This document shows positions 32,973 through 64,000 of a DNA stretch of 64,000 nt, one piece after another. The DNA is from an uncultured Lutibacter sp. (lineage in GTDB: Bacteria > Bacteroidota > Bacteroidia > Flavobacteriales > Flavobacteriaceae). Within the stretch, counting starts at the first letter, position 1, and each line of letters begins with the position of its first letter. A program made the translations under genes and the position numbers. The notes under the pieces are model-generated. The model was given only the letters and a program-made list of their open reading frames with translations. It had not been told where the DNA came from and made no database searches. The stretch spans positions 310,001 through 374,000 of the forward strand of contig NZ_CANLZZ010000002.1 in assembly GCF_947495725.1 (NCBI RefSeq), given 5' to 3'.

Positions 32973-35900
32973 ATGTTAAAATTAACATTTAAATTATTTT
33001 TTATAGTCTTATTTTCAATAACAAGTTTGTTTTCTCAAGAATCAAATTTGGAATATTCGAGACAACTTTCTATATACGAGGGATTAGCGCATAATGGTGT
33101 TACTTCAATACTTGAAGATTCAAAAGGTTATTTATGGTTTGGAACCTATGACGGATTAAATAAATATGATGGTTATAGTTTAAAAACTTATAAAAATACT
33201 GTTGATGAAAAATTATTAGTTAGCAATAGAGTTAGATCTTTAAAGGAAGATACAAATGGTAATTTGTGGATTGGTACAGATAGAGGTATTACAATTTACG
33301 ATTATATAACAGAGCAGTTTAAAAATATTTATTCAAATAATGATTTAAATAAAGGTGTTAACGGGCCAATTGTTAGAGAAATTTTAGTAGATAAACATAA
33401 TGAACTAATTGTATGTGCTACTGAAGATAATGGTATAATGGTTTTTGATGAAGATTATTCATTTATAAGGAGTTATAAAACTTCTTATAAATCGGGCAAG
33501 AATAGTTTTTTTACGGGACTTAAAATTGATAATGAAAAGTATTTATTTTGTGCTAGTAATGGGTTAGAGTTATTCAATATTAATACTGGAAAATTTCAAA
33601 AAGTATTACATAATAAACTAGAAGTCAATACTCCAACAAATGATTTAGTAAAAGTAAACAGAAATACGTTTTTGGTAACCTTAAACAGCGGAGTTGCACT
33701 TATAAATTATAAACCAATTGAGGAAAAATTTAAATTAAAAAGCATTGAATTAAAGGAATATAAGTTTTCAAGTTTGTCAATTGATAAATTGAATAATTTA
33801 TGGTTAGGTACAACCACTGAGGGTGTTGTAAAGATAAATAATGTTTTTTCTTTTACAGAGGGTAAAGATTATAAAATATCACGGTTTTTCTTAAAATCAG
33901 GAGTAACAAGAATAAGTTCAATTGCATCTAATACTAAAAGTGGATGCTGGGTTACAACTTTTAATAAAGGAGTTTTTCAATTTGATATAAATGAAAACTT
34001 ATTTAGAAGTTTTAATACTGAAATGGATTTTAAAAATGCCATTCAAACAAACAACCTACTTAGTTTATCAACTCTAGATGAAAATCGATTTTACGTTTCT
34101 GCAAGTCAAGGCGGTTTAGGCATATTTGATATTAGTAAAGAAAAATTTGACCCGCTACCATTTAATTTACCCGAAAGCCTAAGAAAAAATGTTGGATACT
34201 GTTTTGTTGATTCAAAAAAGAATTTATGGTTTAAAATTTCAGTAAAAGGTTTATGTAGGGTAAAGGCCAACAGCACACGAATTGAAAATATTACTGATGA
34301 TTTTTCAAAAAAATACAACAGTATTCAACCAAGAACAATTGCGGAAGATGAAAAAGGAAATATTTGGATAGGAAGTTCTTCAGATATTCATAGGATTTCT
34401 TTTAATAAAGATGGAGATGTACAAAAAATAGTATCTCTTAATGAAAAGCATCCATATTTTCAAAAAAATAAATTATCGCTAATTAGATTTATTTATGTAG
34501 ACCCTTTATATGATTTTATTTGGGTTGGCGACGATTCGGACGGGTTGTATAGATTAAGCCTTGAAAATAAGAATGTTAAAGTAGAAAATATTAAAGTTGA
34601 TCAATATGTAAATTCTTACAATGATAAAAAATCAATATCAAGCAATTTTGTAACGTCTATTATAAGGTTGCCAAATAAAGAGTTATGGATTGGTACCGAA
34701 GGAGGAGGAATTTGCAAAGTAATTAACAGCGAAAAAGATCCAGAATTTTTATCTCTAACAGAAAAAAATGGATTATCAAATAATGTTGTAAAAAGCATAT
34801 TATACGATCAAGAAAATAATTTATGGGTAAGCACAAATATTGGACTAAATAAAGTTAACATAAAAGATTTTAGTGTAAGGAGGTTTACCAAAGAGGACGG
34901 TTTGCCATTTGAAGATTTTTGGTATGCGGCTCAAGCAGTTGGGAAAAAAACATTGGTGTTTTCTGGGCTTGATGGATTTTGTTATTTTGAACCGGATCAA
35001 ATTTCGAACAAAGAAATACTACCCAGATTAGAGTTTGGAGCATTTAAACTGTTTAACAATATTATTGAGCCAGGGGACACAATAAACGATAGAATATTAT
35101 TGCAATCGAGTTTAACGGAACTTGAAAAAATTAATTTAAAATATAATGAAAATGTATTTTCGATAGATCTTATTTCTCTTCACTTTTCAAACCCTAAAAA
35201 CCATAGTTTAAAATATAGATTGTTGCCAATTAGTGAGGAATGGATTGAAGTACCGTCAAATCAAAATACAATTCATTACAATGGTTTGCCTGCTGGCGAA
35301 TATGAGTTAAATGTTATGGCTTCTGATGCCGCTGGAAACTGGACTCCTCCTAAAAAACTAAAAATCAATATAACGCCTCCATTTTGGAAAACAGGGTTGG
35401 CATATTTTCTGTATTTATCGCTATTAGGTTTATTAATTTACATTGTAGTATATGTAGTTTTAAAAATACAATCTTTAAATCATAAAGTTGAAATTGAACA
35501 ATTAGAAATTGATAATGTAAAAGACTTAAACAAAGCTAAATTGCGATTTTTCTCCAATATTTCACATGAAATAAAAACACCACTTACGTTAATATCTGGT
35601 CCGGTTTCAATTTTAGCTGATAGGTTTAAAAGCAATAAAGATGTTAGTTCTAAACTGTCAATTATTCAACGTCAGTCTAAAAAAATATCTCAATTAATAG
35701 ATCAGGTTCACGATTTTCAAAGAGCCGATGCTAATTTGTTGAAAATGCATTTTACAAGTTTTTGTTTTAATGAATTTATTGAAGAATTGGTTTCCGATTT
35801 TAAGTTTATGGCTGAAATTGATAAAAAAGAATTTGAATTAAAAAATAATGATTCGAAAATATTTGTTTCAGCAGATAAAGATAAATTAGAGAAGATATTT

Positions 35901-37115
35901 AATAATTTGTTAAATAATGCATTTAAATACACAAAATCAGGAGATACAATTAAAATAGATTTTGAACGTAAGAATAACAACTTAATTGTACACGTTAAAG
36001 ATACTGGGCGAGGAATTGATACGGAAGATATAGAACATATTTTTGAGCGCTTTTATCAATCGCAAAAAAAACACGGTGCTTATACTGGAGGTTCGGGAAT
36101 TGGTTTGGCTTTTTCCAAAAGACTTGTAGATATGCATTACGGTTATATCAACGCAACTAGTAAATTAAATGAAGGAAGTGAATTTACAATTGTATTACCA
36201 ATTGTAAAAAATGCTATTTTAAAAGATCAAGAACAAGCAGAATTAAAAATTTTAACTGCCGAAAAAACATATACTCCAACCAATGAATTTGAAAACGAAA
36301 TTAATATTTCTGGAATTGAAGTTGATGGAAGTTTTTCAAATGCTAAAATATTTTTTGCAGAAGATAATAGTGAAATGAGAGGTTTTGTTTTTGGAATTCT
36401 TTCAAACTTTTTTGAAGTTAAATCTTTCGAAAACGGACAAGAATGTTTAAAAGCATTAGAAAACGAATGGCCAGATATTATTATTAGTGATGTTTTAATG
36501 CCAGAGTTAAACGGATTTGAATTATGTAAACAAATTAAATCAGACATCAAAACAAGTCATATACCTGTAATATTATTAACGGCAAGTACATCTATAGAAG
36601 ATGAACTACACGGTTTAAAATACGGAGCAGATTCTTATATTAAAAAACCATTTAATATTCAATATTTGGTAACAAAAACCGAAGCACTGTTAAAAAGTAG
36701 AAAAGCTCTAAGAGAACGTTTTAAAATTGAATTACCACTAAATTTTGAAAACAATATAGAAAGCTCCAAAGATGCTAGTTTTTTGGAAAAGCTTTATAAT
36801 TTAATGGAGAAAAACCTAGATAATCAGGATTTAGATTTAAATAGTTTTGCCAAAGAATTATATTTAAACAGAACCCATTTTTATAAAAAAGTAAAAGCAT
36901 TAACCGATCAAACTCCTTTTGAGTTGCTTAAAGCTTTTAGGCTTAAAAAAGCAGCTGAATTTTTGCGTTATAAAAAACTATCTGTAAACGAAGTTTATAG
37001 TATGACAGGTTTTAAAAGTAGAACACACTTTAGTCGACTTTTTAAAGAAACCTTTAATATTTCTCCAGGAAAATATGCTTCAGAATCTAAAAAAGAAGAA
37101 TTAAAAAAAGAGTAG
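32973..37115 (+). CDS. Hybrid two-component system sensor/regulator (HTCS)
   Basis: A 1380-residue one-protein two-component system. The order is: signal peptide (1-20), two-component Reg_prop beta-propeller repeats (about 30-700, with repeated NLWIGT-type strands), Y_Y_Y domain (about 715-795), one membrane helix (about 807-832), HisKA with phospho-acceptor His865 in FSNISHEIKTPLTL, HATPase with GRGIDTEDIEHIFERFYQ and GGSGIGLAFSK, a receiver domain with phospho-acceptor Asp1173 in IISDVLMPELNG, and a C-terminal AraC-type helix-turn-helix (about 1270-1375). Such proteins sense oligosaccharides in the periplasm and activate adjacent degradation genes. It is 100 bp upstream of the first carrageenase-like gene, so it is the likely regulator of the locus. 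Confidence 0.95.
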   Translation: MLKLTFKLFFIVLFSITSLFSQESNLEYSRQLSIYEGLAHNGVTSILEDSKGYLWFGTYDGLNKYDGYSLKTYKNTVDEKLLVSNRVRSLKEDTNGNLWIGTDRGITIYDYITEQFKNIYSNNDLNKGVNGPIVREILVDKHNELIVCATEDNGIMVFDEDYSFIRSYKTSYKSGKNSFFTGLKIDNEKYLFCASNGLELFNINTGKFQKVLHNKLEVNTPTNDLVKVNRNTFLVTLNSGVALINYKPIEEKFKLKSIELKEYKFSSLSIDKLNNLWLGTTTEGVVKINNVFSFTEGKDYKISRFFLKSGVTRISSIASNTKSGCWVTTFNKGVFQFDINENLFRSFNTEMDFKNAIQTNNLLSLSTLDENRFYVSASQGGLGIFDISKEKFDPLPFNLPESLRKNVGYCFVDSKKNLWFKISVKGLCRVKANSTRIENITDDFSKKYNSIQPRTIAEDEKGNIWIGSSSDIHRISFNKDGDVQKIVSLNEKHPYFQKNKLSLIRFIYVDPLYDFIWVGDDSDGLYRLSLENKNVKVENIKVDQYVNSYNDKKSISSNFVTSIIRLPNKELWIGTEGGGICKVINSEKDPEFLSLTEKNGLSNNVVKSILYDQENNLWVSTNIGLNKVNIKDFSVRRFTKEDGLPFEDFWYAAQAVGKKTLVFSGLDGFCYFEPDQISNKEILPRLEFGAFKLFNNIIEPGDTINDRILLQSSLTELEKINLKYNENVFSIDLISLHFSNPKNHSLKYRLLPISEEWIEVPSNQNTIHYNGLPAGEYELNVMASDAAGNWTPPKKLKINITPPFWKTGLAYFLYLSLLGLLIYIVVYVVLKIQSLNHKVEIEQLEIDNVKDLNKAKLRFFSNISHEIKTPLTLISGPVSILADRFKSNKDVSSKLSIIQRQSKKISQLIDQVHDFQRADANLLKMHFTSFCFNEFIEELVSDFKFMAEIDKKEFELKNNDSKIFVSADKDKLEKIFNNLLNNAFKYTKSGDTIKIDFERKNNNLIVHVKDTGRGIDTEDIEHIFERFYQSQKKHGAYTGGSGIGLAFSKRLVDMHYGYINATSKLNEGSEFTIVLPIVKNAILKDQEQAELKILTAEKTYTPTNEFENEINISGIEVDGSFSNAKIFFAEDNSEMRGFVFGILSNFFEVKSFENGQECLKALENEWPDIIISDVLMPELNGFELCKQIKSDIKTSHIPVILLTASTSIEDELHGLKYGADSYIKKPFNIQYLVTKTEALLKSRKALRERFKIELPLNFENNIESSKDASFLEKLYNLMEKNLDNQDLDLNSFAKELYLNRTHFYKKVKALTDQTPFELLKAFRLKKAAEFLRYKKLSVNEVYSMTGFKSRTHFSRLFKETFNISPGKYASESKKEELKKE

Positions 37116-37214
37116 GGTTGTTAATTTACGGTTAGAAACATTTAATATATTTAAAACTACAAAGTAATAAGTTTTAATGCTGAATTTTAATGTATTAAAT
37201 TAAATGTTGTAGAA

Positions 37215-40130
37215 ATGACTTTTTTTCAATTAAAGAGTTTACTGATTTTATTTTTTGGATTAATTACTTCAATAAACAGTAACGCTCAAAACACAAATCT
37301 TTTAAATCAAGATTATTATGGATTTGAAAAGGAAACAAATGGTTGGGAAACCAATAATAATATAAATTGGAAATCCAATTCAGAAAAATCTGCCACAGGA
37401 AATTTTAGTTTAAAGTTTTCATCTTTAACCGAAGTTAACCCTTTAATAAGTTTTGATACACAAAAAACAATTTTAAAAGTTCGAGTAGCTAAAAGCAATA
37501 AAAATAAATTTATTGTGGCTTCAAGTTATGAAGGAACTCTATTAGCTGTTCGTTTTGACGGTAAGATTCTTTGGGAAAATACTTTGTCGGGTTTTATGAA
37601 TCATGATATTTGGTGTGATGATATAACTGGAGATGGAGTTGATGAAATTTTTGTTGCAAATGCAAACGGAACATTATTTTGTTTGAATTCCAAAGGTGAT
37701 GAGCTATGGCAATTTAAACCATCAGATGCACCAATGTATTCGGTTTGTGTAGCCAGTAAAAATGAAACTCCCTACGTAGTTTGTGGAGGGTTTGATAAAA
37801 ATATATATTATTTATCTTCAGAAGGAAACCTGGTTCAAACTTTAGACGCTTCAACATATTCCGAAAACAAAGTGTTCTCTGGGATTACAGCTCCTTCAAA
37901 TACACATATTGCAAATTTTATTAGAACAATTAAAAAATCTGATGGTTCTGAAATGTTAGCTGTTTTAGGAACAAACAACAGTATGCAGGTTACCGGGAAC
38001 ATGTATTTTATTGAGGTGCTTGGTGGATTGGTAGGTGAATCTGTTAAAATTGATTCCGGAAAACCAGTAGGAGAAATGAGAATTTGCGATGTTGATGGCG
38101 ATGGTACACAAGAAATATTGATGGGTACAAGTAGTCATGTAAATGATGCGCGCGTAGTTAGGTTTGATCCCTTTAAAACATCCAACCAGCAAAGTAATTT
38201 TAAAATTTCTAGCATTAGAAACAAAGTTGGAGCGCCAGGATATCGTATTTCTCAACCCGAAATTATTAAAAACGATGACGAGCTGCAATATTTTGTATTG
38301 CACGGTCCAAATATTTTATTAGTTCCTCAAAGTATGGATTTAAATGAAGCGGAAGTTTTGAATTCGTCTTATTCATTTAATGATATGTGGAAAGACCCTA
38401 CTTCTGGGAAAATTATTTTGGCAAGCAATCAAAGTGGAGGTAGTGAAATTCATATTTTAAATACTGAAATTCCAACTTGGAAAAGTGCTTTTGTTGCAAT
38501 TTCTCCAAAAGGAAAAACACAAAAAGTAATAGAAAACATAAATAAAATTGAATCTGATTTGGTTAGTTTTAACAAGCCAGTTTGGGAGCGAAACCCCATA
38601 TCAATTTATTTGATGCACGAAAATAAAACAGGTGTAGATCCAAGTCTTTATAATGCTCCTATATTTCTGCCACAACCTTGGATGCCAAAAGTACAGGACG
38701 GTGCAAGTTGGAATCGCGATGCGATGACAAACGAGAAATATAGAGATAAACGAGATAAAAGAAGGCAATATGTTTTAAATGAAACGGAAGTTCTCAATAC
38801 CATAATTCCAAATTTTGGCGAAGATGGAATTGCTTATTGGGGAGGACATGGTAACGACCCTTATTTTTATAGTGTAGAAACTACAAAAAAAGTTATTGAT
38901 GCCGCAGCTGGAAAACAAATGGTTTTGGTTTATCCCGAAATACAAGATGACAGTGAGGATTTTCAATTTGTTATGGATGATTTAATGTACCCGTTAGCAA
39001 CCTATGGAAAAGGAAAAAATTTAAAGTTATTTATTCGGTCAAAAAATGTTTTTTGGCAAGGAAGCGTTTATTTACCTTATTGGCATAGATTATTGTCTGG
39101 AGAATTTTCAGATGTTTTTGTTCCTTCTATGGAAGAAACAACAGATAAAACTATGGAATTGAGTATTGCTGGAAGAATGGGAGTTTGGGCAAGTGGAGCG
39201 GTTGATAGCTGGGGTTCTAGAGCAGTCCCAGATAATACTAGTTTTGATCGATTACGTCAAATTTCCGATCAACCTTTAAGTAGTCATTTTTTACGACAAT
39301 TAATTTATGTTGCTGCAAATGGAGCCCAATATTTCGATAATTTTACAAAACCAGATTTGTTTGCTAAGTTAATAGCTTCGGGAGTGTTATATGTTCCAAA
39401 ACGTTCTGAGATTTTAAGTATTTCTCCAGTACATTTAAGTATGCTTTCTCCAGATGAACATTATTTAGAAGATGGTTCGGAGCTAAAATGGTTAACCAAC
39501 TTTAATCAGCAATTTGAAGATAGCAATAAATTTGTATTTAGTAGAATGAATGGTTCGTGGCCAGGAGCACCAATAAATGAGTGGGATTTTTCGAGTTATG
39601 CAGCCAATACAAAAGAGCGAAGATTAAACTTTTTACCAACTTATAAAAATGGAATGGTTTTAATTACGCCGCCACAAAAGGGAACTTTTGCAGATAAAGA
39701 TGCAATTAGAGGAAAATTAACCGATTATTTACATCCGTTTTATAAAAATATAATGAAGGAGTATTACACCGATGGTCATCATTATTATTCGTCAGACGGA
39801 AATCAAACATACGCTGCAGATACTTATTATAAAACTATTGAATCTGACATTAAAGATAATGCATCAAAATTACCAATTACAGTTTCAGGAGATGTGGCTT
39901 GGGTAGTTGCCCAAACATCGCCAACTCATTTACGGTTAACAATTATAGATAATGGCTATATAAATCCTGATGATAGAAATGCATCTGTAAGTTTTAATAA
40001 TATAGAGCCTAAAAAAATTGTGGATCTTCTAGATGGTAAAACATTTAGTCCTTCAAACTCAATGATAAATGTTGATATTCCAAGTGGGGCGTTTCGATTT
40101 TTAGATATAGAATTATCAAGCCCGTTTTAA
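37215..40130 (+). CDS. Lambda-carrageenase-like protein A (GH150-like) with partial CBM at the N-terminus
   Basis: A 971-residue secreted protein, the first of three paralogues. The signal peptide covers about 1-24. Residues about 33-80 (YGFEKETNGWETNNN, then SATGNFSLKFSS) resemble the first strands of a CBM4/9-type fold and are absent from the two paralogues. Next comes a PQQ-like beta-propeller (about 85-400; SSYEGTLLAVRFDGKILWEN, DGVDEIFVANANGTLFC), then a large conserved domain with YWGGHGNDPYF, VFVPSMEETTDKTMELS and SGDVAWVVAQTSPTHLRLT. Propeller plus this region is the architecture described for lambda-carrageenase (GH150). No T9SS sorting domain is present. The family call is from recalled architecture and from the locus; it is not a quinoprotein dehydrogenase. 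Confidence 0.65.
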   Translation: MTFFQLKSLLILFFGLITSINSNAQNTNLLNQDYYGFEKETNGWETNNNINWKSNSEKSATGNFSLKFSSLTEVNPLISFDTQKTILKVRVAKSNKNKFIVASSYEGTLLAVRFDGKILWENTLSGFMNHDIWCDDITGDGVDEIFVANANGTLFCLNSKGDELWQFKPSDAPMYSVCVASKNETPYVVCGGFDKNIYYLSSEGNLVQTLDASTYSENKVFSGITAPSNTHIANFIRTIKKSDGSEMLAVLGTNNSMQVTGNMYFIEVLGGLVGESVKIDSGKPVGEMRICDVDGDGTQEILMGTSSHVNDARVVRFDPFKTSNQQSNFKISSIRNKVGAPGYRISQPEIIKNDDELQYFVLHGPNILLVPQSMDLNEAEVLNSSYSFNDMWKDPTSGKIILASNQSGGSEIHILNTEIPTWKSAFVAISPKGKTQKVIENINKIESDLVSFNKPVWERNPISIYLMHENKTGVDPSLYNAPIFLPQPWMPKVQDGASWNRDAMTNEKYRDKRDKRRQYVLNETEVLNTIIPNFGEDGIAYWGGHGNDPYFYSVETTKKVIDAAAGKQMVLVYPEIQDDSEDFQFVMDDLMYPLATYGKGKNLKLFIRSKNVFWQGSVYLPYWHRLLSGEFSDVFVPSMEETTDKTMELSIAGRMGVWASGAVDSWGSRAVPDNTSFDRLRQISDQPLSSHFLRQLIYVAANGAQYFDNFTKPDLFAKLIASGVLYVPKRSEILSISPVHLSMLSPDEHYLEDGSELKWLTNFNQQFEDSNKFVFSRMNGSWPGAPINEWDFSSYAANTKERRLNFLPTYKNGMVLITPPQKGTFADKDAIRGKLTDYLHPFYKNIMKEYYTDGHHYYSSDGNQTYAADTYYKTIESDIKDNASKLPITVSGDVAWVVAQTSPTHLRLTIIDNGYINPDDRNASVSFNNIEPKKIVDLLDGKTFSPSNSMINVDIPSGAFRFLDIELSSPF

Positions 40131-40143
40131 TATGATATAAAGA

Positions 40144-41232
40144 ATGAAATTATATAGCAAACATATCAGTTTTTTGGGATTATTCATCTTTCAATTATTG
40201 TACAATCAATTGTATGCGCAAAAATATGACGAAATTATTTACAAAATAAATTCAGTTGCACCAGCTAAAATAGATTTAGATAAAGGTGATTATGAACTTT
40301 CAATAAAAGTTTGGATAGAACCTAATAGTTTTGTGGAAGGAATAAAAACAATAATAAATCCGATTGGAAAGTCCATTACTTGGAATTTTGGAGATGTTGA
40401 AATTGAGAAATGGGTTGATCTATCTCAAGAATTCTCAATTTCAGAAAAAGTAGAAAACGGAACTTTTATAATTCAATTAATTGAGGACATTATATTTGGA
40501 GTTGGAGAAGGAAATTTTTACATAGATGATATTAGCTTAAGATTAAAAGAAAATATTGAAGATAAATTTACAATACAAACAGTAGGTGAAACTTGCGTTG
40601 ATAAAGACAATGGTAGAATTGAAATAAAAGCAGCATCTTCAAGAAATTATGCAATTTTACTCAATGGAATTGACAAAGGAAGTTTCACAAGTGAAACTAC
40701 ATTAGAAAATATTAAACCTGGCGATTATAAATTGTGCATTTCTGCAACTGAAGGTAGTTTTGAGCAGTGTTTCAATATAAAAATAGTAGAAGGAAATACG
40801 ATTTCAGGAAAAACTACAATTAACGCAAATAAAGCAAGTGTTGAAATTAATGAAGGTACACCGCCGTTTAATATAAAGTTAAATGGAAAAACCGTTTTAC
40901 AAACCTCAATTAATAATTTTGAAATTGCTGTAATTCCAGGAGATTTTTTAGAAGTAACAACCAACATAAAATGCGAAGGCTTATTGACTAAAAAAATAGC
41001 ACTGCAAGAAGATATTTTGGTGTATCCAAACCCAGTAAATGAAATACTAAATGTTAGAGCTTTTGAAAATAGCACAATTCACCTATACAATAGTTTAGGG
41101 GCTTTAGTTAAAAGAATAGACCGGTCTAGCACATTAAATTCCATTAATATAAGTAATTTAACCACTGGAGTTTATTATTTAAAAATAATTTCAAAAGATA
41201 AAAATTATAATAGGCCTGTGTTAATAAAATAA
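40144..41232 (+). CDS. Secreted CBM-like protein with T9SS sorting domain
   Basis: A 362-residue protein without an evident catalytic domain. After the signal peptide (about 1-25) comes a beta-sandwich segment (about 27-140; KGDYELSIKVWIEPNSF, GNFYIDDISLRLKEN) resembling the later strands of a CBM4/9-type module; the first strands are not visible. A Cys-containing module follows (about 145-285, starting VGETCVDKDNGRIEI), which also occurs in the GH82 protein at 43613. A T9SS type A sorting domain ends the chain (VYPNPVNEILNV, then GVYYLKIISKDKN). It lies 13 bp after the GH150-like gene and is probably co-translated. It likely binds substrate at the cell surface. Confidence 0.8.
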   Translation: MKLYSKHISFLGLFIFQLLYNQLYAQKYDEIIYKINSVAPAKIDLDKGDYELSIKVWIEPNSFVEGIKTIINPIGKSITWNFGDVEIEKWVDLSQEFSISEKVENGTFIIQLIEDIIFGVGEGNFYIDDISLRLKENIEDKFTIQTVGETCVDKDNGRIEIKAASSRNYAILLNGIDKGSFTSETTLENIKPGDYKLCISATEGSFEQCFNIKIVEGNTISGKTTINANKASVEINEGTPPFNIKLNGKTVLQTSINNFEIAVIPGDFLEVTTNIKCEGLLTKKIALQEDILVYPNPVNEILNVRAFENSTIHLYNSLGALVKRIDRSSTLNSINISNLTTGVYYLKIISKDKNYNRPVLIK

Positions 41233-41368
41233 ATTTTCTTAATCTATTGTTTACTGAGAATTACAGATAAATTATTGATGGATACATTAAAAATACATAT
41301 AATTTATATATTTACATTACCCCTCAAATTTTTTATTAATCGAGCCCCATTTTTAAAATTCATTAAAT

Positions 41369-43216
41369 ATGGATATAAAATTACTTAGAAAATTTTTGAT
41401 ATTATTTGTGGCTATTTGTGGTTGGCAAATGGAAGCGATTGCTCAAACCAATGCAACGCCAATATTAAATGCACAAGCATTTGGTTTTGAAGATCAAGGA
41501 GATGGTACATATGCTTGGGAAGACTGGGCAGATGGGGTAGCTGGATTTTCAACGGCTACAGGGACTATTCCCTCAACTTCAGATAACGCTTTTGTAAGCG
41601 GGTCAAGAAGTGTGATTTCTACTTTTGCTTATAATGGGGCGAGTACGACGGGAGATGCACAGTTAAATACTTACTTTGGCCCAGATGGAGATTTTCAAAT
41701 AGAGGCGGGTAATTATTATTTTTCAGCTTGGGTTTATATTGTAGATGAAGGTCCTAATAAAATTCAATTGTCTATTGATGCTGATGACATCTCTGGTATG
41801 TCAAATTACAATGCAATCAATATTTCAGGAGTAGGCATAAATACTTGGACGCAAATTGGAACTGAGATCACCATAGATCCAGGTGATGATGATGCATGGA
41901 TGAGAATTCAATATTTTGATTTCCCTGCATCTGGTACAGGTTCAATTTATTTGGATGATATTGAACTAGAACTTATTGATGATGGAATTTTTGATAACGG
42001 AGATGTTGCAAATAGTAATTGGTCTAACGGATTAAATTGGAATGGGTCTAGAGTTGTAACCGGTATCGCTTCATTAGCCGGAAGCCCTGTTCTTGATGCC
42101 ACTTCTTCAATTGAAAATTTAAGTACGGGTTTTGAGGTTGCCGATTATTCTATTACCTCACCAGGTGATTTTGCTTTGACAATTAACGGGTCGTCAGATG
42201 TTAGATTGATTGATCCAAATATTGATGGGGTTTTGACGATAGATTGTGACATTGATTTAAATTTGACTGCAGGGAAAATCACTACATCAACAGATGTAAA
42301 TAATCAGTTAATATTTGCTCAAGGAAAAACAGTAACATTAAGCGAAAGAATTGTTGTTGAAAATAATAACGCCGTTAACCCAATTATTTTTAATGGGGAT
42401 TTAATAAGTAACGGTAAAAGTATTTTTGTTTTTAATGGTTCTAATTCAACAGCAAATGGAGCTATAGAGTTTAGCAATACCGCAGATAATACTGGGTTTT
42501 TGTCTGAAATGAGGGTTTTTAAAGATGATATTGTTTCTAATATTATTGGACCAAAATTATTTATGCCTTCTGGAGGAGTATTTAAATTTCAAGATGGGAC
42601 TGCAGGGGCTAGTGCAACATTAACTCTAAATGGGAAGAATTCCTTTGAAGGAGTTCTGAATAGTGCTGATGGAGAGAATACTGTGGTTTTTAATGCCGAT
42701 CAAACTAATATGGGTTTACTTAAGTTGGCTAATACTAGTACATCACTTACTTTTGAATTAGCTTCAAGTGTTACTGAGGTTGTTTTTAGTAGTACTGAAG
42801 GTACTTGGATTGGTACACTTAATATTGTAGGCTTTAAAAATTGGGATATAAAAATTGGGGGTACAGCATTAACAACAGCTCAATTGAGCGCAATAACAAT
42901 AGATGGAGCCACTCCTACAAATCCGATTATTCAAGTGAATGGCTATTTAGTTTATGATAATGTTGCAGGTATAGAAGATTACCAACAATTAGAAGGCGTT
43001 AATATATATCCAAATCCAACCTCTAGTCAATTAAACATTGAATGTCCGTATGGAAGTGAAGTTGGAATTTATAATTTAATGGGAGTGAAGGTAAAATCTG
43101 TTTCGAACGCAGAAAAGAGTTTCAGATTGCCAGTTGCAGAATTATCTAGCGGATTGTATATTGTTAAAGTACAATCGGATGGTAAATTCTATAGTAAGAA
43201 AATACAAGTTAAATAA
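41369..43216 (+). CDS. Secreted CBM-like / beta-solenoid surface protein with T9SS sorting domain
   Basis: A 615-residue protein. The signal peptide covers about 1-26 (ending AIAQ). Residues about 35-205 form a full CBM4/9-like sandwich beginning FGFEDQGDGTYAWED and ending GSIYLDDIELELI. Residues about 215-535 are Gly/Asn/Thr-rich with regularly spaced hydrophobic residues, like a beta-solenoid or autotransporter passenger (NSNWSNGLNWNGSR at its start). The T9SS domain is at about 540-615 (NIYPNPTSSQLNI, GLYIVKVQSDGKF). I recognise no catalytic motif. It may be a surface glycan-binding protein taking the place of SusE/SusF. Base use appears slightly richer in G+C than its neighbours by eye. 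Confidence 0.75.
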   Translation: MDIKLLRKFLILFVAICGWQMEAIAQTNATPILNAQAFGFEDQGDGTYAWEDWADGVAGFSTATGTIPSTSDNAFVSGSRSVISTFAYNGASTTGDAQLNTYFGPDGDFQIEAGNYYFSAWVYIVDEGPNKIQLSIDADDISGMSNYNAINISGVGINTWTQIGTEITIDPGDDDAWMRIQYFDFPASGTGSIYLDDIELELIDDGIFDNGDVANSNWSNGLNWNGSRVVTGIASLAGSPVLDATSSIENLSTGFEVADYSITSPGDFALTINGSSDVRLIDPNIDGVLTIDCDIDLNLTAGKITTSTDVNNQLIFAQGKTVTLSERIVVENNNAVNPIIFNGDLISNGKSIFVFNGSNSTANGAIEFSNTADNTGFLSEMRVFKDDIVSNIIGPKLFMPSGGVFKFQDGTAGASATLTLNGKNSFEGVLNSADGENTVVFNADQTNMGLLKLANTSTSLTFELASSVTEVVFSSTEGTWIGTLNIVGFKNWDIKIGGTALTTAQLSAITIDGATPTNPIIQVNGYLVYDNVAGIEDYQQLEGVNIYPNPTSSQLNIECPYGSEVGIYNLMGVKVKSVSNAEKSFRLPVAELSSGLYIVKVQSDGKFYSKKIQVK

Positions 43217-43242
43217 GTACTTGTTTTAATAGATATGAAACG

Positions 43243-43328
43243 AGGCTGTTTGAAAAGTGAAGTTTTCGTCAACCTGAAATAAATTCAGAATGAAGGTTTC
43301 AACTACTTTTTAAACAGCCTTTTTTTTT
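43243..43328. repeat. Large imperfect inverted repeat with T-tract
   Basis: AGGCTGTTTGAAAAGT (43243-43258) pairs with ACTTTTTAAACAGCCT (43305-43320) with one mismatch, followed by eight T. Inside is a second hairpin built on AACCTGAA / TTCAG and AGGTT. It starts 27 bp after the preceding gene and would act as a terminator, but its length and nested structure are more like an interspersed palindromic element; similar sequences seem familiar from other flavobacteria. Confidence 0.6.
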
Positions 43329-52875: not shown

Positions 52876-52899
52876 TACATTAATTATAACATATTTAAA

Positions 52900-54717
52900 A
52901 TGAAAAATAAATTTATTGCGCTAATTTCAATATTGTTTTTAAGTATTTCAATTCAAACATACGCCTCTGAAATAATAAAAATAAAACATAAAGAAGGTGA
53001 TATGACTTCGGTGGTTAGAGAGGCTATTGAAGGCTTTAAAGGCAAAGATATTAAGTTGGTTTTTGAGAAAGGAACTTATCAATTTCTTGCAGATTACGCC
53101 ATGGATAAATATTGTTTTATTACAAATCATGGTAATGGATTAAAAAAAATAATTTTTAGATTTGAAGGGTTTAATTCGGTGGCAATTGATGGTAATGGTT
53201 CCGATTTTATTTTTAGCGGACAAGTAGCACCTTTTCAATTTAATAAATGTAAAAAAATTGAGGTAAAAAATGTATCAATAGATTGGGATATTCCTTTTTC
53301 TTTTCAAGGAGAAGTTGTTGCTATAAATGAAGAGGAAGGATGGAGAGATATTAAGCCTTTTACTGAAGGTTTTTCTTGGTCTTTAAACAAAGGACGAATC
53401 ACTTTTCCTAATATCAATCACTTTCACTTTTCAGAAATGGGAAGCACGCTAGCGTTTGATAAAGAAACAAAGGCTGTTGCACACGGAGCTTGGGATATAA
53501 GTAGCCGACCTCGTTGGGTAGAAAAAAGACCAAACGGAATTTTAAGATTTCACGAGCCATTAAAACATTACCCAGCAATTGGAACAATATTACACTCAAA
53601 AGGACCACACGAACAAAATAGATATGCTCCTGCATTTCAGGTAACAAACTCTAGCAATGTCTTTTTTAAAAATGCGGTTGTACACCATGCACTTGGAATG
53701 GGGTTTTTGTTTGAAAGAACTTCAGATATTAATATTCTAAATTGTGGAGTTTACTTGAAAAAAGGAACAAACAGAGTGGTTTCTTCTATTGCTGACGCAA
53801 CTCATTTTGCAAACTGTAAAGGTGAAATTTTAATTGAAGATTGTCGTTTCGAAAATATGTTAGATGATGGTACAAATGTACATGGAACCTACGTAAAAGT
53901 TGATAAAATAATAAATGATTATACCGTTAGGGTTGGATTAGGTCATTTTGAACAAATGGGTTTTGAGTTTGCCGGTGTAAAAGATGAGGTATGGTTTATT
54001 CACAATCCAAGCCCAAAAAGAGCAAGTAAAAATGTAGTTTCAAAAGTGAAATATGTTAATGATAAGTTTACTGATTTAACCTTCAAAAATAAAATACCTT
54101 CTAAATTGGTTGAAGGCGATATTATAGAAAACAAAACTTGGAATCCGGTATTTACAATGCGAGGAAATACAATTAGAAATCATAGAGCCAGAAATATTAT
54201 TATTAAAACACCTAAGAAAATTGTGATTGAGAACAATGAGCTTTCTTCCATGATGTCTTCAATTTTATTTCGTGGAGAAACTTACTTTTGGTATGAATCT
54301 GGTGCGGTACAAGATGTTTTAATTAGGAACAATAATTTCAATTATGTGGCTTATAGTGGAGCAGAACACGCAGTAATGTATGTAACTCCGCGTTTAGCAA
54401 AATCATTTGATGTTACGGAGTTATATGATAAAAATATCCGTTTTGAAAACAATACAATTAGAACTTTTGATAGTAGAATTATTATAGCAGATAGAGTTGA
54501 TGGATTGAAAATAACTGGAAATAAAATCATACAAGATAAAAGTCAAGGAGCTGCGTTATATCCAAATGCACCAATATTCGATTTAATTAATTGTAATAAT
54601 GTAGAAATTTCAAAAAACACCTACGAAGGTTCAACGGAATACTCATTAAAAGTTGATAAGAAATCTTCAAGAAAATTAAAAATTAAAAGAAATAAAGGTT
54701 TTAAAAATTTGAAATAA
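52900..54717 (+). CDS. GH110-type alpha-1,3-galactosidase, beta-helix
   Basis: A 605-residue secreted right-handed beta-helix protein. The signal peptide covers about 1-22 (ending TYAS). The N-terminal region has KLVFEKGTYQFLADYAMDKY, and the central helix has ATHFANCKGEILIEDCRFEN followed by D322-D323-GTNVHGTYVKV, which I recognise as the conserved GH110 block with a paired Asp. Length (about 600) fits GalA/GalB enzymes. GH110 members from marine bacteria are reported to cleave alpha-1,3-galactosidic bonds of lambda-carrageenan oligosaccharides, which suits this locus. It starts 24 bp after the sulfatase, and its stop codon overlaps the next start. Confidence 0.77.
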   Translation: MKNKFIALISILFLSISIQTYASEIIKIKHKEGDMTSVVREAIEGFKGKDIKLVFEKGTYQFLADYAMDKYCFITNHGNGLKKIIFRFEGFNSVAIDGNGSDFIFSGQVAPFQFNKCKKIEVKNVSIDWDIPFSFQGEVVAINEEEGWRDIKPFTEGFSWSLNKGRITFPNINHFHFSEMGSTLAFDKETKAVAHGAWDISSRPRWVEKRPNGILRFHEPLKHYPAIGTILHSKGPHEQNRYAPAFQVTNSSNVFFKNAVVHHALGMGFLFERTSDINILNCGVYLKKGTNRVVSSIADATHFANCKGEILIEDCRFENMLDDGTNVHGTYVKVDKIINDYTVRVGLGHFEQMGFEFAGVKDEVWFIHNPSPKRASKNVVSKVKYVNDKFTDLTFKNKIPSKLVEGDIIENKTWNPVFTMRGNTIRNHRARNIIIKTPKKIVIENNELSSMMSSILFRGETYFWYESGAVQDVLIRNNNFNYVAYSGAEHAVMYVTPRLAKSFDVTELYDKNIRFENNTIRTFDSRIIIADRVDGLKITGNKIIQDKSQGAALYPNAPIFDLINCNNVEISKNTYEGSTEYSLKVDKKSSRKLKIKRNKGFKNLK

Positions 54718-56264
54718 TGAAATTTTTAAAAATTGCAATACTATTTAGTGCACTAGTTATAGTTAACTGTAAAGTAGAGGGTCAAGAATCAATTAATGTT
54801 TCTAATAAGGTACAAGTAGTTTTGTTGGCAGGTCAATCTAATATGGCGGGAGCAGGAAATTATGATGAACTCGATGAGGAATTTCAAAAAAGAATCGAGA
54901 AAATTTCTAGCAGGGTTTCTTTAAGTTTTAATGGTTCAGAAGCTAAACCATTATCTTATTTCAACAATAAGCCTTCAGAAAAGTACAATTTCACCAAGCG
55001 TTTTGGGCCTGAATTATTTTTAGGCTTAACCTTAGCTGAAAAAAATCCAACAAATGAGTATTTGCTAATTAAAAGATCACAAGGTGGAACAGCTTTGTAT
55101 GGTGCTTGGAGTCCTGATTGGACAGCCGAGAAAGCAAAAGCAATTGAGAAAGGTGAGTTTAAGCAAAACTTAAAGCTATATGAAATGCATATAGCAGATA
55201 TTCGTAAAAACTTAAAAGAACTAGAAGCAAAAGGAAAAAGCTTTGAGATAATTGGTTTAGCTTGGATGCAAGGTGAAAATGACGCGATTTTAGAAGTATC
55301 GGCTAAAGGCTATCGAAATAATTTAAAGGCTTTAATTAAAGCATATAGAATTGAGTTTAAATCTCCTGAAATGCCATTTGTTGTAGGTCAAATAAATTCG
55401 AGATATGGAGTTGAAGGTGGTGCTGGAATGGTAAGAAAAGGCATGTTAAATGCCGTGTATCAAGATTATTATTCTGCAATAATAAAAACTTCAACAGATA
55501 CTATTTGGAGCGATTTTCCAAAACATACGGATAATGTACATTATAATACAGACGGACAAAAACGATTAGGGATTGCTTTTGCAACTTCCTTTTTTAATAT
55601 AGAGAAGAAGTTAAATGTAAGGCCATTTCAAGGTTTAAAGTCATTAAAGCCAGGCTCAACAATACGAATTAAGGCATTAGGTAAAACCAATATGATTTAC
55701 AATGTTTATACACCTACTTCATATTCAAAAAATAAATTATCACCTATAATTATTGCATTTAGTCCAGCTGGAAACGGAGCTGGAATTTTAAATCAAATGA
55801 GAGAAAGCGCTGAGAAATTTGGTTGGATATTAGTTGGTTGTGATAAGCTTAAAAACGGAATGAAGGATGTAGCATTAGAACAAAAAATGGAAGATGAAGT
55901 AATGGATGATATTCTAAAAAATATTCCACATAATTCAAACAGAATTTATTTAGCTGGGTTTTCTGGAGGTGCTATGAGAGCTTACAGTTTAACAACCAGA
56001 AGACCTGAAACTTATGCAGGTGTAATTGCCTATGGAGGATGGCTTGGAGGTAAAGATTTTCAGGATAAAGAATATCAATCGGGTATGTATGTTGCAGTTG
56101 TAAACGGAGAAAAAGATAAAGGAGCAAACAAATGGAAAGAAATTGATTCTAAAACCTTGATAAAAAATAATTGTGAAGTAAAACATTTTTCACACGAAGG
56201 TGGACACAAAATTGCACCTCCTAAAATTACTAATGAAGTGTTAAGTTGGTTAAATACCAAATAA
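54717..56264 (+). CDS. SASA-family esterase fused to an alpha/beta hydrolase
   Basis: A 515-residue secreted protein. The signal peptide is at about 1-22. The first domain (about 30-300) is an SGNH/SASA acetylesterase: VVLLAGQSNMAGAG with Ser41, LAWMQGENDA, and the final DxxH in DNVHYNTDGQKRLG. The second domain (about 310-515) is an alpha/beta hydrolase resembling PHB-depolymerase-like esterases: nucleophile Ser416 in AGFSGGAMRAY, probable Asp in NGEKDKGANKW and His in HEGGHKIAPP. Both triads look complete. The role is probably removal of acyl groups from glycans. Its ATG overlaps the GH110 stop codon by one base, and it is followed after 16 bp by another SASA esterase. Confidence 0.8.
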   Translation: MKFLKIAILFSALVIVNCKVEGQESINVSNKVQVVLLAGQSNMAGAGNYDELDEEFQKRIEKISSRVSLSFNGSEAKPLSYFNNKPSEKYNFTKRFGPELFLGLTLAEKNPTNEYLLIKRSQGGTALYGAWSPDWTAEKAKAIEKGEFKQNLKLYEMHIADIRKNLKELEAKGKSFEIIGLAWMQGENDAILEVSAKGYRNNLKALIKAYRIEFKSPEMPFVVGQINSRYGVEGGAGMVRKGMLNAVYQDYYSAIIKTSTDTIWSDFPKHTDNVHYNTDGQKRLGIAFATSFFNIEKKLNVRPFQGLKSLKPGSTIRIKALGKTNMIYNVYTPTSYSKNKLSPIIIAFSPAGNGAGILNQMRESAEKFGWILVGCDKLKNGMKDVALEQKMEDEVMDDILKNIPHNSNRIYLAGFSGGAMRAYSLTTRRPETYAGVIAYGGWLGGKDFQDKEYQSGMYVAVVNGEKDKGANKWKEIDSKTLIKNNCEVKHFSHEGGHKIAPPKITNEVLSWLNTK

Positions 56265-56280
56265 GAATATATTTATCATT

Positions 56281-57663: not shown

Positions 57664-57747
57664 TTGTCAAAGTTGCAATAATTGTATTTTGAAGTAGTAA
57701 GTAAAGCTAAAGTGTTTTATCTTGCGGTATCAAAATTTAAAAAGTAT

Positions 57748-58737: not shown

Positions 58738-58746
58738 GTAGAAATT

Positions 58747-59619: not shown

Positions 59620-59641
59620 ATAGAATTATAAAATGAATAAT

Positions 59642-59678
59642 AAAAGGAGTATACAGTTTGTATACTTCTTTTTTTTTT
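59642..59678 (+). terminator. Terminator after the DUF1080 gene
   Basis: AGTATACA and TGTATACT flank GTT, with AAAAGG on the left and a long T-run on the right. It starts about 23 bp after the stop codon and ends the seven-gene run. Confidence 0.8.
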
Positions 59679-59776
59679 GAAATTAACTACAAGATACATT
59701 TTATGAACCTCTAAAAACAAAACTTTTTAAATTTTAAAGTTAATTTGAGATTAAGAAACATATCTTCAAATTAATT

Positions 59777-62062: not shown

Positions 62063-62064
62063 TT

Positions 62065-63606
62065 ATGAAAATTAATCAATTAAAGTTATTTGCGTTAGTA
62101 GTTATTTTAATGCAATTAATATCTTGTAAAAATTCGGAAATAACTTCCAAAGAGATAACTAAAAAACCAAATATTGTTTTTGTTTTAGTTGATGATTTAG
62201 GCTATGCAGATGTTGGTTTTAATGGGTCAAAGTATTTTGAAACACCAAATTTAGATGCTTTAGCTAAAAAAAGTTTAGTGTTAAATAATGCATATATGTA
62301 TCCAACTTGTTCTCCTTCTCGAACAGCAATTTTTACAGGAAAACAATCTTTTAGAACTGGAGTTTATACGGTTCCTGTTTTAGAAAAGGGAACTGATCAA
62401 GAAAATATTTTCTCACGTTGGACAGTTGGTAAGGAACACCCAATTTATGCCGAGCCATTGGCCGAAGCTGGATACAAATCTATTCATTTAGGTAAATGGC
62501 ATATTGTTGGTCCTTATCCAAAAGAGGAATTAAAAATGGAGTTTCCAATAAAGCAAAAATTAACACAACCAGATCCAGGCGTATATGAGTGGGCTAAGAT
62601 TCATAAAACACCTGAAGTGCAGCAATATTATCCAGAAGGAAGAGGTTTCATAAAAAATGTAGGAGGAACTTATAGAGGAGATCCTGCATTGGAAGTTAAT
62701 GGTTATAAAAGCGTAGGTGGTGGTTATTGGGCACCATTTAGCAATCCGTTTATAGAACAAAAATCAACAGATAAATGGTTAACGGATAGGTTAACGGATG
62801 ATGCAATTGAATTTATAGGAGAACATAAAGACGAACCCTTTTTGATTAATTTAAATTATTATGCCGTACATCGCCCAATTAGAGCAAGAAGTGAAGAGCT
62901 ACTTCAAAAGTACTTAACAAAACCTGTTGATTCAATTACAGGACAAGGAATTACTCCAAATCAGAACATAAAAGAAAAGGTTGCAGGTTATGCTTCTATG
63001 GTAGAATCTGTAGATGATAATATTGGTCGTGTAGTTGATTATTTAGAAGAAAATGGACTTAGAGAAAATACTATAATTATAGTTACTTCAGATAATGGTT
63101 ATAATGGAAATACTAGTGCCAATAAATTGCTAAGAGGTTCTAAAGGTTATATTTACGAAGGAGGAATAAAAGTGCCAATGTTAATTAACTGGCCTAATAA
63201 TATAACTCCAAGAAACAGTGATGCAGCTGTTACCTGCTTAGATATTTTTCCAACATTAATGGATGTTGCTGGGATTGAAGATTTTAAAGGTGTTTTAGAT
63301 GGGAATTCGGTAACAGAATTATTTAGAGAAGATTCTAAATTATTTCAAGAAAGACCATTGTTTTGGCAATTAAATAGCCAATGGAAACACGGTACATGTT
63401 CTGTAATTAGAAAAGGTGATTTTAAGTTAATTCAATTTTTAGCCGATGGAAAACTAGAATTGTATAATTTAAAAACAGATGTTGCAGAGAGTGATAATTT
63501 AGCTGAAAAAGAAGTAGAAATAACAAAAAATATGTTAACCGAATTGGTTGAATGGAGAAAGATAAATAAAGTGCCATTACCACCAAATTCGATATTAAAA
63601 TTTTAA
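62065..63606 (+). CDS. Sulfatase (family S1), lipoprotein
   Basis: A 513-residue type I sulfatase. The lipobox QLISC lies at about residue 20. The metal-binding block is NIVFVLVDDLGYADVGFNGS, the formylglycine motif is canonical C82-S-P-S-R86 followed by TAIFTG, HLGKWHIVG carries the Lys/His pair, and IVTSDNGYNGNT the late Asp-Asn. It starts two bases after the GH42-like gene and is co-transcribed. It differs clearly from the sulfatase at 51412, so the two probably remove sulfate from different positions or sugars. No sulfatase-maturing enzyme is encoded nearby. Confidence 0.93.
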   Translation: MKINQLKLFALVVILMQLISCKNSEITSKEITKKPNIVFVLVDDLGYADVGFNGSKYFETPNLDALAKKSLVLNNAYMYPTCSPSRTAIFTGKQSFRTGVYTVPVLEKGTDQENIFSRWTVGKEHPIYAEPLAEAGYKSIHLGKWHIVGPYPKEELKMEFPIKQKLTQPDPGVYEWAKIHKTPEVQQYYPEGRGFIKNVGGTYRGDPALEVNGYKSVGGGYWAPFSNPFIEQKSTDKWLTDRLTDDAIEFIGEHKDEPFLINLNYYAVHRPIRARSEELLQKYLTKPVDSITGQGITPNQNIKEKVAGYASMVESVDDNIGRVVDYLEENGLRENTIIIVTSDNGYNGNTSANKLLRGSKGYIYEGGIKVPMLINWPNNITPRNSDAAVTCLDIFPTLMDVAGIEDFKGVLDGNSVTELFREDSKLFQERPLFWQLNSQWKHGTCSVIRKGDFKLIQFLADGKLELYNLKTDVAESDNLAEKEVEITKNMLTELVEWRKINKVPLPPNSILKF

Positions 63607-63611
63607 AAAAA

Positions 63612-64000
63612 ATGAGATTCACGAAACTATTTTTTTTATTTTCCTTGATGGTTTATTTGGGTTCAGCTCAAGAAGTTCGAAATGATTCTCTGGTTTATGG
63701 GGCATCTTTTATGGATCGTATAAAACCTGTAAAAGGTGATAATTTGGTTTCAAACGTATGGGGTGCTAAAAACGTTGTTCCAAGAGATGTTAAAAATGGA
63801 ATTGAAGATGTGGATTATTCCTATTGGGGAGGAAATATAATTCGTGGGGACGACAATAAGGAGCATCTTTTTGTTGCTCGTTGGCGAGAAGATATTTCAA
63901 GGCCAAATGGAAAAAGCGGACATAACTTATGGTGGGATTCCGAAGTGGCTCATGCCGTAAGTGATAATCCGATGGGGCCTTTTAAAGTAATTGAGGTTAT
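63612..64000 (+). CDS. Secreted family-43-like glycosidase, N-terminal fragment
   Basis: The gene runs off the right edge; about 129 residues are visible. The ATG at 63612 gives a signal peptide (MRFTKLFFLFSLMVYLGSAQ). The mature part has YSYWGGNIIRGDDNKEHLFVA, then WWDSEVAHAVSDNPMGPF, a pattern typical of five-bladed propeller glycosidases related to GH43/GH117, where the SEVAHAVSDNPMGPF strand follows the first blade. It starts 5 bp after the sulfatase. The visible part is too short to fix the family or to see all catalytic acids. Confidence 0.6.
   Translation, partial: MRFTKLFFLFSLMVYLGSAQEVRNDSLVYGASFMDRIKPVKGDNLVSNVWGAKNVVPRDVKNGIEDVDYSYWGGNIIRGDDNKEHLFVARWREDISRPNGKSGHNLWWDSEVAHAVSDNPMGPFKVIEV

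What the first reader, a model, noticed from the sequence alone, without database searches (positions are those of the whole stretch)
32973..64000. Carrageenan utilisation locus combining iota-type and lambda-type enzymes
One GH82-like iota-carrageenase, three GH150-like lambda-carrageenase candidates, a GH110-type alpha-1,3-galactosidase, a GH42-like beta-galactosidase and two S1 sulfatases follow a hybrid two-component regulator on one strand. GH82 and GH110 are recognised from motifs; GH150 is from architecture. Described carrageenan loci are mainly directed at kappa/iota; a lambda-directed flavobacterial locus with GH150 triplication plus GH82 and GH110 would be new or little described.
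Basis: partly seen in the sequence, partly recalled or inferred. Interest (0 to 1): 0.85.

Follow-up and report, generated by a model that had tools for sequence, protein, structure and literature searches.

The report
Giant lambda-carrageenan degradation gene cluster
A Lutibacter bacterium carries a 108-kilobase, one-directional run of 57 genes that looks built to dismantle lambda-type carrageenan, a heavily sulfated red-algal sugar polymer, and one of its proteins belongs to an untested branch of a family so far known for cutting a different carrageenan.

Summary
Pfam confirms three GH150 lambda-carrageenases; sequence and fold searches confirm a GH82-like beta-helix protein, a GH110A-type alpha-galactosidase, two S1 sulfatases and a hybrid two-component regulator. 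The "GH42-like" gene is GH167. The window cuts the locus, which runs 87 kb further: 57 co-directional ORFs over 108 kb, with a fourth GH150, two more GH110, a second GH167, six GH2, 14 more sulfatases and one SusC/SusD pair. In Lutibacter citreus 48 of 57 genes keep the order. Each enzyme class of the published Pseudoalteromonas lambda cascade has a counterpart, so lambda-carrageenan degradation is well supported.

The "iota" half is not established. The GH82-like protein keeps five GH82 active-site residues but lies in a clade separate from the solved iota-carrageenase and has Gly where that has Asp247. Its relatives sit near GH150 (16 of 21 within 40 kb); iota-carrageenase-type GH82 do not (0 of 9). 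No GH16 or GH127 gene is in the locus; both are elsewhere in the genome. GH167 argues the other way.

Lambda loci, and GH82 with GH150 in one PUL, are already in print, so this is a large new variant of a known kind. The GH82-like clade is its most novel part.

The parts
32687..32758 (+). tRNA-Gln(ttg), left border of the locus
   Evidence: ARAGORN; at the same place in L. citreus; in L. oricola and two same-genus genomes the tRNA is there without this locus next to it in the stretches held
32973..37115 (+). HTCS hybrid two-component regulator, probably the locus activator
   Evidence: Pfam domains; only regulator seen when all 57 ORFs were scanned
37215..40130 (+). GH150 lambda-carrageenase (paralog 1)
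   Evidence: PF25290/25291/25292; 47% to P. carrageenovora CglA
40144..41232 (+). secreted protein of unknown function with T9SS tail; C-terminal part shared with the GH82-like protein
   Evidence: PF18962, TIGR04183; match of GH82-like residues 426-648
41369..43216 (+). secreted protein with weak CBM_4_9 match (below Pfam cut-off) and T9SS tail
43613..45562 (+). GH82-like beta-helix protein with T9SS tail, ending 7 bp before the next GH150 gene; clade distinct from the solved iota-carrageenase
45570..48413 (+). GH150 lambda-carrageenase (paralog 2)
   Evidence: 49% to CglA
48420..51257 (+). GH150 lambda-carrageenase (paralog 3)
   Evidence: 48% to CglA
51412..52875 (+). S1 sulfatase, weakly S1_8-like, possible lipoprotein, Cys83 at the formylglycine position
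   Evidence: PF00884; best reference hit sulf20500, 27%; motif
52900..54717 (+). GH110A-type exo-alpha-1,3-galactosidase
   Evidence: 9beh GH110A E 7e-228; 56% to P. carrageenovora homologue
54717..56264 (+). SASA-type carbohydrate esterase
   Evidence: PF03629
56281..57663 (+). SASA-type carbohydrate esterase
   Evidence: PF03629
57682..58737 (+). ThuA-family protein
   Evidence: PF06283
58747..59619 (+). 3-keto-disaccharide hydrolase (DUF1080) family
   Evidence: PF06439
59777..62062 (+).
   Evidence: 9whd E 2.9e-258, 6ptm E 9.7e-231
62065..63606 (+). S1 sulfatase, best PDB match a kappa-carrageenan S1_16 sulfatase; Cys82 at the formylglycine position
   Evidence: 9fo1 E 3.9e-69; motif
63612..64000 (+). 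start of a 439-aa protein without family match, one of three paralogs (one modelled as a beta-propeller); the gene and the locus continue past the window, to C2:450761

Best explanation
This is the first 31 kb of a 108-kb, 57-ORF, HTCS- and SusCD-type polysaccharide utilisation locus of a Lutibacter, dedicated mainly to lambda-family carrageenan. Proposed working: three CglA-type GH150 and one GH150B-type enzyme cut the beta-1,4 links of the polymer. The HTCS senses fragments and activates the tract. One SusC/SusD pair imports oligosaccharides. In the periplasm S1_8-like sulfatases take off 2-sulfates and S1_15-like sulfatases 6-sulfates at the non-reducing end, and GH110 and GH2 enzymes remove alpha- and beta-galactose in turn, giving galactose. 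A T9SS-secreted GH82-like beta-helix enzyme and two GH167 widen this to hybrid or differently sulfated stretches. Shown: gene content, order, conserved signature residues, and conservation of order in L. citreus. Inferred: substrate, order of steps, regulation and localisation. Kappa/beta-family carrageenan is probably handled by a separate PUL on contig C1.
For: GH150 x3 in the window and a fourth outside, 52% to the second GH150 of the P. carrageenovora plasmid, which I take to be GH150B-type. GH110A E 7e-228 plus two more GH110. S1_8B-type sulfatase E 2.9e-116 to PDB 9bbd; four of 16 sulfatases closest to S1_8 and two to S1_15 references. GH2 at C2:423324, 42% to the lambda-PUL GH2. SusC and SusD. 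Cys at the formylglycine position in 16 of 16 sulfatases. 57 of 57 ORFs on one strand. L. citreus: 51 of 57 proteins found at 50% identity or more over 60% of their length, 48 in the same order, over 121 kb. The published cascade uses these enzyme classes (PMC12549532).
Against: No expression or growth data. GH167 and S1_16/S1_19-like sulfatases are known from kappa/iota-family work, so the locus may not be purely lambda. Ten of the 16 sulfatases, several GH2, a GH29-like, a Melibiase-like and three unassigned paralogs have no role in the published lambda cascade. One of the S1_8-like assignments (window 51412) rests on 27% identity. L. oricola has only 36 of 57 genes by the same measure and lacks SusC and SusD in the stretch held, so the right part may be a separable module.
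Confidence: 0.82

Rival explanations
1. A true combined iota + lambda locus: the GH82-like protein is an iota-carrageenase, GH167 with S1_19/S1_16-like sulfatases strips iota/kappa oligosaccharides, and the anhydrogalactose is released by the GH127 enzymes of contig C1.
For: The GH82-like protein has the GH82 fold with 1h80 as best match and keeps Tyr218, Gln222, Arg243, Glu245 and His281. The P. carrageenovora GH82, described in PMC6262041 as 95% identical to a Pseudoalteromonas iota-carrageenase, also has Gly at position 247, so Gly alone does not rule out iota activity. Two GH167. Three strong GH127 matches on C1. The only GH82-like matches in the own genome at E 1e-30 are this protein and C2:405365, neither of the iota-carrageenase type.
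Against: The window protein lies outside the clade of the solved iota-carrageenase (100/100 support) and outside the P. carrageenovora GH82 clade. Its relatives are within 40 kb of a GH150 in 16 of 21 cases, iota-carrageenase-type GH82 in 0 of 9. No GH16 or GH127 in the locus.
Confidence: 0.35
2. The tract is two or more adjacent PULs (left: GH150/GH82-like/GH110A; right: GH2-rich with SusCD) aimed at different sulfated galactans, brought together next to tRNA-Gln.
For: In L. oricola the genes of about the left 80 kb map to a 76-kb stretch at another chromosomal place, without SusC/SusD. A FAD-oxidoreductase/unknown/CstA trio changes place between species. GH2 and GH110 are each present several times.
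Against: Only one HTCS and one SusCD pair among 57 scanned ORFs; no gap above 357 bp and no strand change; 48 of 57 genes in the same order in L. citreus.
Confidence: 0.3
3. The target is another sulfated galactan or an animal glycan, with GH150 and GH110 in a different role.
For: GH110 is also known on blood-group B antigens (PMC7939477, search listing only); GH29-like and Melibiase-like genes are present.
Against: GH110 here is closest to a protein deposited as GH110A, which in PMC12549532 works in the lambda cascade; that paper calls GH150 enzymes exclusively active on lambda-carrageenan.
Confidence: 0.05

Closest known systems
lambda-CarPUL of Pseudoalteromonas distincta U2A / PUL 8 and 9 of P. 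carrageenovora 9T
   Same: GH150 of two types, GH110, GH2, S1_8 and S1_15 sulfatases; in P. carrageenovora on the same plasmid as a PUL with GH82 and a GH42-like (GH167) gene
   Different: here on a large chromosomal contig, HTCS/SusCD/T9SS architecture, three CglA-type GH150, three GH110, six GH2, 16 sulfatases, esterases and unassigned families, no GH16, one tract on one strand
GH150+GH110+GH2 PUL of Flavobacteriaceae bacterium S85 (PMC6262041, passages)
   Same: flavobacterial, two GH150 beside GH2 and GH110
   Different: GH82 and GH167 not mentioned for that PUL in the passages I read; extent not compared
BxMAGBOV CarPUL of a bovine faecal MAG (PMC13168452, passages)
   Same: GH82, GH150, GH167 and sulfatases in one PUL
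   Different: contains GH16_17; gut organism
GH82 iota-carrageenase CgiA of Alteromonas fortis (1h80)
   Same: beta-helix fold, five active-site residues kept
   Different: Gly instead of Asp247, separate clade, relatives near GH150

Membership tests
GH150 (lambda-carrageenase) | beta-propeller, middle and C-terminal CGLA domains above Pfam cut-off | tested here: met
   three window proteins and L015:617-3283
GH150 (lambda-carrageenase) | endo-cleavage of lambda-carrageenan | not testable with these tools
   needs enzyme assay
GH82 | right-handed beta-helix like 1h80 | tested here: met
   AlphaFold model and Foldseek, best hit 1h80_B E 5.4e-29
GH82 | Tyr218, Gln222, Arg243, Glu245, His281 (1h80 precursor numbering). 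These correspond by a constant offset of 11 to Y229, Q233, R254, H292 of PMC3669377; its E257 is one off from Glu245 by that offset | tested here: met
   all five present in the window protein; 60, 61, 60, 61 and 61 of 61 distinct rows
iota-carrageenase subgroup of GH82 | Asp at position 247 (candidate catalytic residue, PMC4919138) | tested here: not met
   Gly255 of the ORF from 43574; but the P. carrageenovora GH82 also has Gly
iota-carrageenase subgroup of GH82 | groups with the solved iota-carrageenase | tested here: not met
   separate clades, each 100/100
iota-carrageenase subgroup of GH82 | activity on iota-carrageenan | not testable with these tools
   needs assay
GH110 | GLAA-B domains and similarity to GH110A | tested here: met
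GH167 | full-length match to the solved GH167 (9whd named so; 6ptm, which I take to be BovGH167) | tested here: met
   residues 11-757 and 26-758
lambda-CarPUL | GH150 + GH110 + GH2 + S1_8 + S1_15 in one locus | tested here: met
   S1 subfamilies by nearest reference, not by SulfAtlas
Bacteroidota PUL | SusC/SusD pair in the cluster | tested here: met
   C2:438800-443635, 96 kb from the regulator
kappa/iota carrageenan core PUL | GH127 or GH129 and GH16 carrageenase | tested here: not met
   no GH127 or GH16 match in the locus in genome-wide searches; GH129 only judged by no such name in the Pfam scans of 57 ORFs; three strong GH127 and a GH16 at 57% to a plasmid GH16 on C1

The most novel reading that the evidence does not exclude
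The GH82-like proteins that travel with GH150 are an unrecognised carrageenase group with a new specificity (lambda-family or lambda/other hybrid stretches rather than iota) and a changed catalytic base, forming a recurrent GH150-GH82L gene pair in Bacteroidota and Planctomycetota; in addition the three paralogs at C2:373612, 376429 and 398807 are a new beta-propeller glycosidase family working in the same pathway.
Probability: 0.4. Interest if true: 0.65.

Novelty: new variant of a known kind. Interest (0 to 1): 0.47.

Why it matters
Lambda-carrageenan is among the most sulfated natural polysaccharides, and PMC12549532 presents its breakdown in one Pseudoalteromonas as the first complete pathway. 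A flavobacterial version with many more sulfatases and glycosidases suggests a more complex natural substrate and offers enzymes for carrageenan tailoring. The GH82 result warns that automatic 'iota-carrageenase' labels on GH82 relatives may be wrong: of 61 distinct GH82-like rows compared here only 6, one of them the solved enzyme itself, carry its Asp247.

Tried and rejected
Recent triplication of GH150: rejected, the paralogs are 50-53% identical and each has its own counterpart in two other Lutibacter.

Missing Asp247 as proof of inactivity or of non-iota activity: rejected. The P. carrageenovora GH82 also has Gly there. Two further sequences with Asp at this column (L205 = G410:C2:44166, L214 = G420:C19:60656) are not in my set of nine iota-carrageenase-type genes and lie about 37 kb and 18 kb from a GH150 (places). 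So it is similarity to the iota-carrageenase clade, not the residue alone, that separates.

Genomic island with tRNA target repeat: no further copy of the tRNA end (14 bases or more) in the C2 stretch and no shared 12-mer between the two borders. The tRNA-Gln flank is present in L. oricola and two same-genus genomes, but rsgA, the right neighbour here, was not found in the stretches held there, so no clean empty site was shown.

Profile search of the unassigned family against PDB sequences: only weak hits (best E 0.022, an arabinanase), most of the list being one unrelated protein. NCBIfam on ten proteins: T9SS tails, weak pectinase-like hits for the GH82-like protein and two weak hits for C2:432778; nothing for the three paralogs. 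Lutibacter with carrageenan in the paper library: 3 papers listed, none opened.

Limits of the linkage table: the 36 genomes all hold GH150, because they were chosen through GH150 or hold the window; rows are related to each other, so the Fisher value there (1.4e-4) is a description, not a test of independent events. The 21 'relatives' are catalytic-part matches at 41% identity or more, whose listing was cut by the tool; not all have Gly (G399, G411 and G421 have His). Rows at 41% or more that I left out of the 21: G416:C34 and G406:C1, which are two of the nine iota-carrageenase-type genes, and G397:C48 and G000:C3, which match only the C-terminal module. The nine are matches to a Cellulophaga GH82 at E 3.6e-81 or better; Asp was checked in eight of them (L215-L222), the ninth (G427:C6) had no locus.
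Full report
WHAT IS THERE. The window is contig C2, bases 310001-374000, of a 4.24-Mb genome. The genome is a Lutibacter: its DNA polymerase I is 86% identical to that of L. citreus, 78% to L. oricola and 72% and 82% to two genomes marked same genus, against 64-66% for the other eight searched. From 32973 to the window's end every listed ORF of 120 aa or more is on the + strand.

THE LOCUS IS CUT BY THE WINDOW. I fetched the contig to base 463000. The co-directional run ends at C2:450761, before an rsgA gene. It holds 57 ORFs of at least 100 aa on the + strand and none on the - strand, after dropping ORFs mostly inside longer ones; they cover 104,130 coding bases of 107,789, and the largest gap is 357 bp. 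Pfam on the part beyond the window (with all 57 were scanned) adds a fourth GH150, two GH110, one GH167, six GH2, one GH29-like, one Melibiase-like, one weak cellulase-like, one pectin-lyase-like protein (a second GH82 relative), 14 sulfatases, a third SASA and a GDSL esterase, two more DUF1080, a FAD oxidoreductase, a CstA-like transporter and one SusC/SusD pair. All 16 sulfatases have a Cys at the formylglycine position.

IS IT ONE THING. In L. citreus 51 of 57 proteins are found at 50% identity or more over at least 60% of their length, 48 of them in the same order, over about 121 kb from the regulator to the second GH167. In L. oricola 36 of 57 are found, 29 in order, in 76 kb; SusC and SusD are not found in the 134 kb held. 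In L. oricola the chromosomal flank with tRNA-Gln is on another contig than the locus, so the locus changes place. 24 of 57 locus proteins are 90% or more identical in L. oricola, while the flanking polymerase is 78% and a flanking membrane protein 86% over the 590 residues held. That suggests transfer of locus pieces between Lutibacter lineages.

LAMBDA. The published P. distincta U2A cascade consists of GH150A/B, GH110A/B, GH2, three S1_8 and S1_15 sulfatases (PMC12549532; outline and abstract, Results parts 1-2 of 4 and Discussion read). Against the P. carrageenovora plasmid I find three CglA-type GH150 at 47-49% and one at 52% to the second plasmid GH150; GH110A-type at 56%; a GH2 at 42%; a sulfatase at 45% to a plasmid sulfatase, which matches PDB 9bbd, 'S1_8B sulfatase', at E 2.9e-116; three further S1_8-like at 27, 37 and 39%; and two S1_15-like at 32%. 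The S1_8 and S1_15 labels of the plasmid genes are my reading of PUL 8 and PUL 9 in PMC6262041. So each enzyme class of the cascade has a counterpart, though not every one an obvious orthologue.

IOTA. The GH82-like protein matches the solved iota-carrageenase by sequence and by predicted fold (mean pLDDT 68.7; the helix part mostly 78 or more). I aligned it with GH82-like proteins from the 74 GH150 neighbourhoods, two Lutibacter stretches, 30 loci of a search of 36 genomes, the P. carrageenovora GH82 and the printed part of 1h80: 61 distinct rows, the window protein having entered twice and been counted once. Tyr218, Gln222, Arg243, Glu245 and His281 are kept in 60, 61, 60, 61 and 61 of 61. 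Position 247 is Asp in 6, His in 8, Ser in 1 and Gly in 46, including the window protein. Glu245 and Asp247 are named as candidate catalytic residues in a review (PMC4919138, one passage); that Asp247 is the general base is recalled, not read. A maximum-likelihood tree of 61 rows puts the solved enzyme and the five other Asp rows in one clade and the window protein with five others in another, both at 100/100; branches between clades are partly weak. In 36 genomes holding GH150, relatives of the window protein at 41% identity or more lie within 40 kb of a GH150 in 16 of 21 cases (6 of 21 within 5 kb), iota-carrageenase-type GH82 in 0 of 9, eight of these on contigs without GH150 and one 260 kb away (limits in Tried and rejected). 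Of 74 GH150 loci from a genome scan, 17 have a GH82-like gene in the flanks held and 11 have one within 300 bp on the same strand, four of these in Planctomycetota; the other 57 have none in up to 10 kb. Against this reading: the P. carrageenovora GH82, called an iota-carrageenase in PMC6262041, also has Gly; the only solved relatives are iota-carrageenases; 5 of 21 relatives are not near GH150; and two GH82-like genes with Asp outside the nine are 18-37 kb from a GH150. Two GH167 in the locus point to kappa/iota-family or hybrid substrate: GH167 releases beta-neocarrabiose (PMC6923384, passages). On C1 (123-151 kb) sit three strong GH127 matches, a GH16 at 57% to a plasmid GH16 that PMC6262041 relates to beta-carrageenase, and a sulfatase at 53% to a plasmid PUL 7 sulfatase (a weaker GH127 match is on C6 and one below the cut-off elsewhere on C1). 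This is a candidate separate kappa/beta/iota PUL.

UNASSIGNED FAMILY. Three paralogs (C2:373612-374931, 376429-377580, 398807-400576) have no Pfam or NCBIfam match. An alignment of seven members gave a model of the second (mean pLDDT 71.5, the other four models 42-53) whose best PDB matches include GH43, GH117 and GH159 enzymes at 10-17% identity (best E 3.3e-11). I read this as a possible new beta-propeller glycosidase family; activity is untested.

COMPARISON WITH PRINT. A flavobacterial PUL with two GH150, GH2 and GH110 (strain S85) is described in PMC6262041 (passages and section 14). A PUL with GH16_17, GH82, GH150 and GH167 of a bovine faecal MAG is in PMC13168452 (passages). In the library of open papers, searches for GH150 with GH82 and Flavobacteri (7 papers), for at least four of GH82/GH150/GH110/GH167/carrageenan (6 papers), for Lutibacter with carrageenan (3 papers), and for at least three of lambda-carrageenase, iota-carrageenase, Flavobacterium and gene cluster since 2018 (7 papers) listed no title or abstract opening that describes this Lutibacter locus or a GH150-linked GH82 clade. 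Subscription papers are not held, so this is weak evidence of absence. GH150 is uncommon: 14 of 397 genomes drawn from the family match, the own genome included, and neither of two other same-genus genomes in that draw does.

VERDICT. A real, well-supported lambda-carrageenan locus of large extent. The combined iota/lambda reading is open. The GH150-linked GH82-like group is the most testable new point.

Noticed in passing
C2:377835-382361 (L009:5835-10361): FAD-dependent oxidoreductase, unknown protein and CstA-like transporter form a trio that sits at another place in the L. oricola locus with 94-99% identity. CstA relatives carry pyruvate (recalled), so removal and uptake of pyruvate from pyruvylated carrageenan is a possible role.
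   Followed up: partly
window 54717-59619: Two SASA esterases, a ThuA protein and a DUF1080 protein between the GH110 and GH167 genes. The first SASA is the best match in 16 of 72 other GH150 loci, hinting at an ester or 3-keto step on natural lambda-carrageenan.
   Followed up: partly
C2:373612, 376429, 398807: Three paralogous proteins without family match; the second is modelled as a beta-propeller like GH43/GH117.
   Followed up: partly
G000:C1:123000-151000: Second candidate carrageenan PUL with three GH127, GH16, GH2 and sulfatases.
   Followed up: partly
L. oricola G397:C51:503269 and L. citreus G398:C32:213428: GH150 matches in a score band of 436-485 bits to PF25290 in 7 of 35 genomes including both relatives, with none in this genome; possibly a third GH150 type, not tested by a tree.
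   Followed up: no
window 32687-32758: tRNA-Gln at the left border; in three other Lutibacter genomes the tRNA flank is followed by other DNA in the stretches held, so the site may be an insertion hotspot.
   Followed up: partly
window 44882-45559 and 40561-41226: The C-terminal 225 residues of the GH82-like protein recur in the neighbouring 362-aa protein and in many other, often about 1000-aa, frames of this genome and others: a shared module that includes the T9SS tail.
   Followed up: no
G246:C6:178048-178779: Weak GH150 matches in a 1087-aa frame of another genome of the family, perhaps a distant GH150 relative.
   Followed up: no
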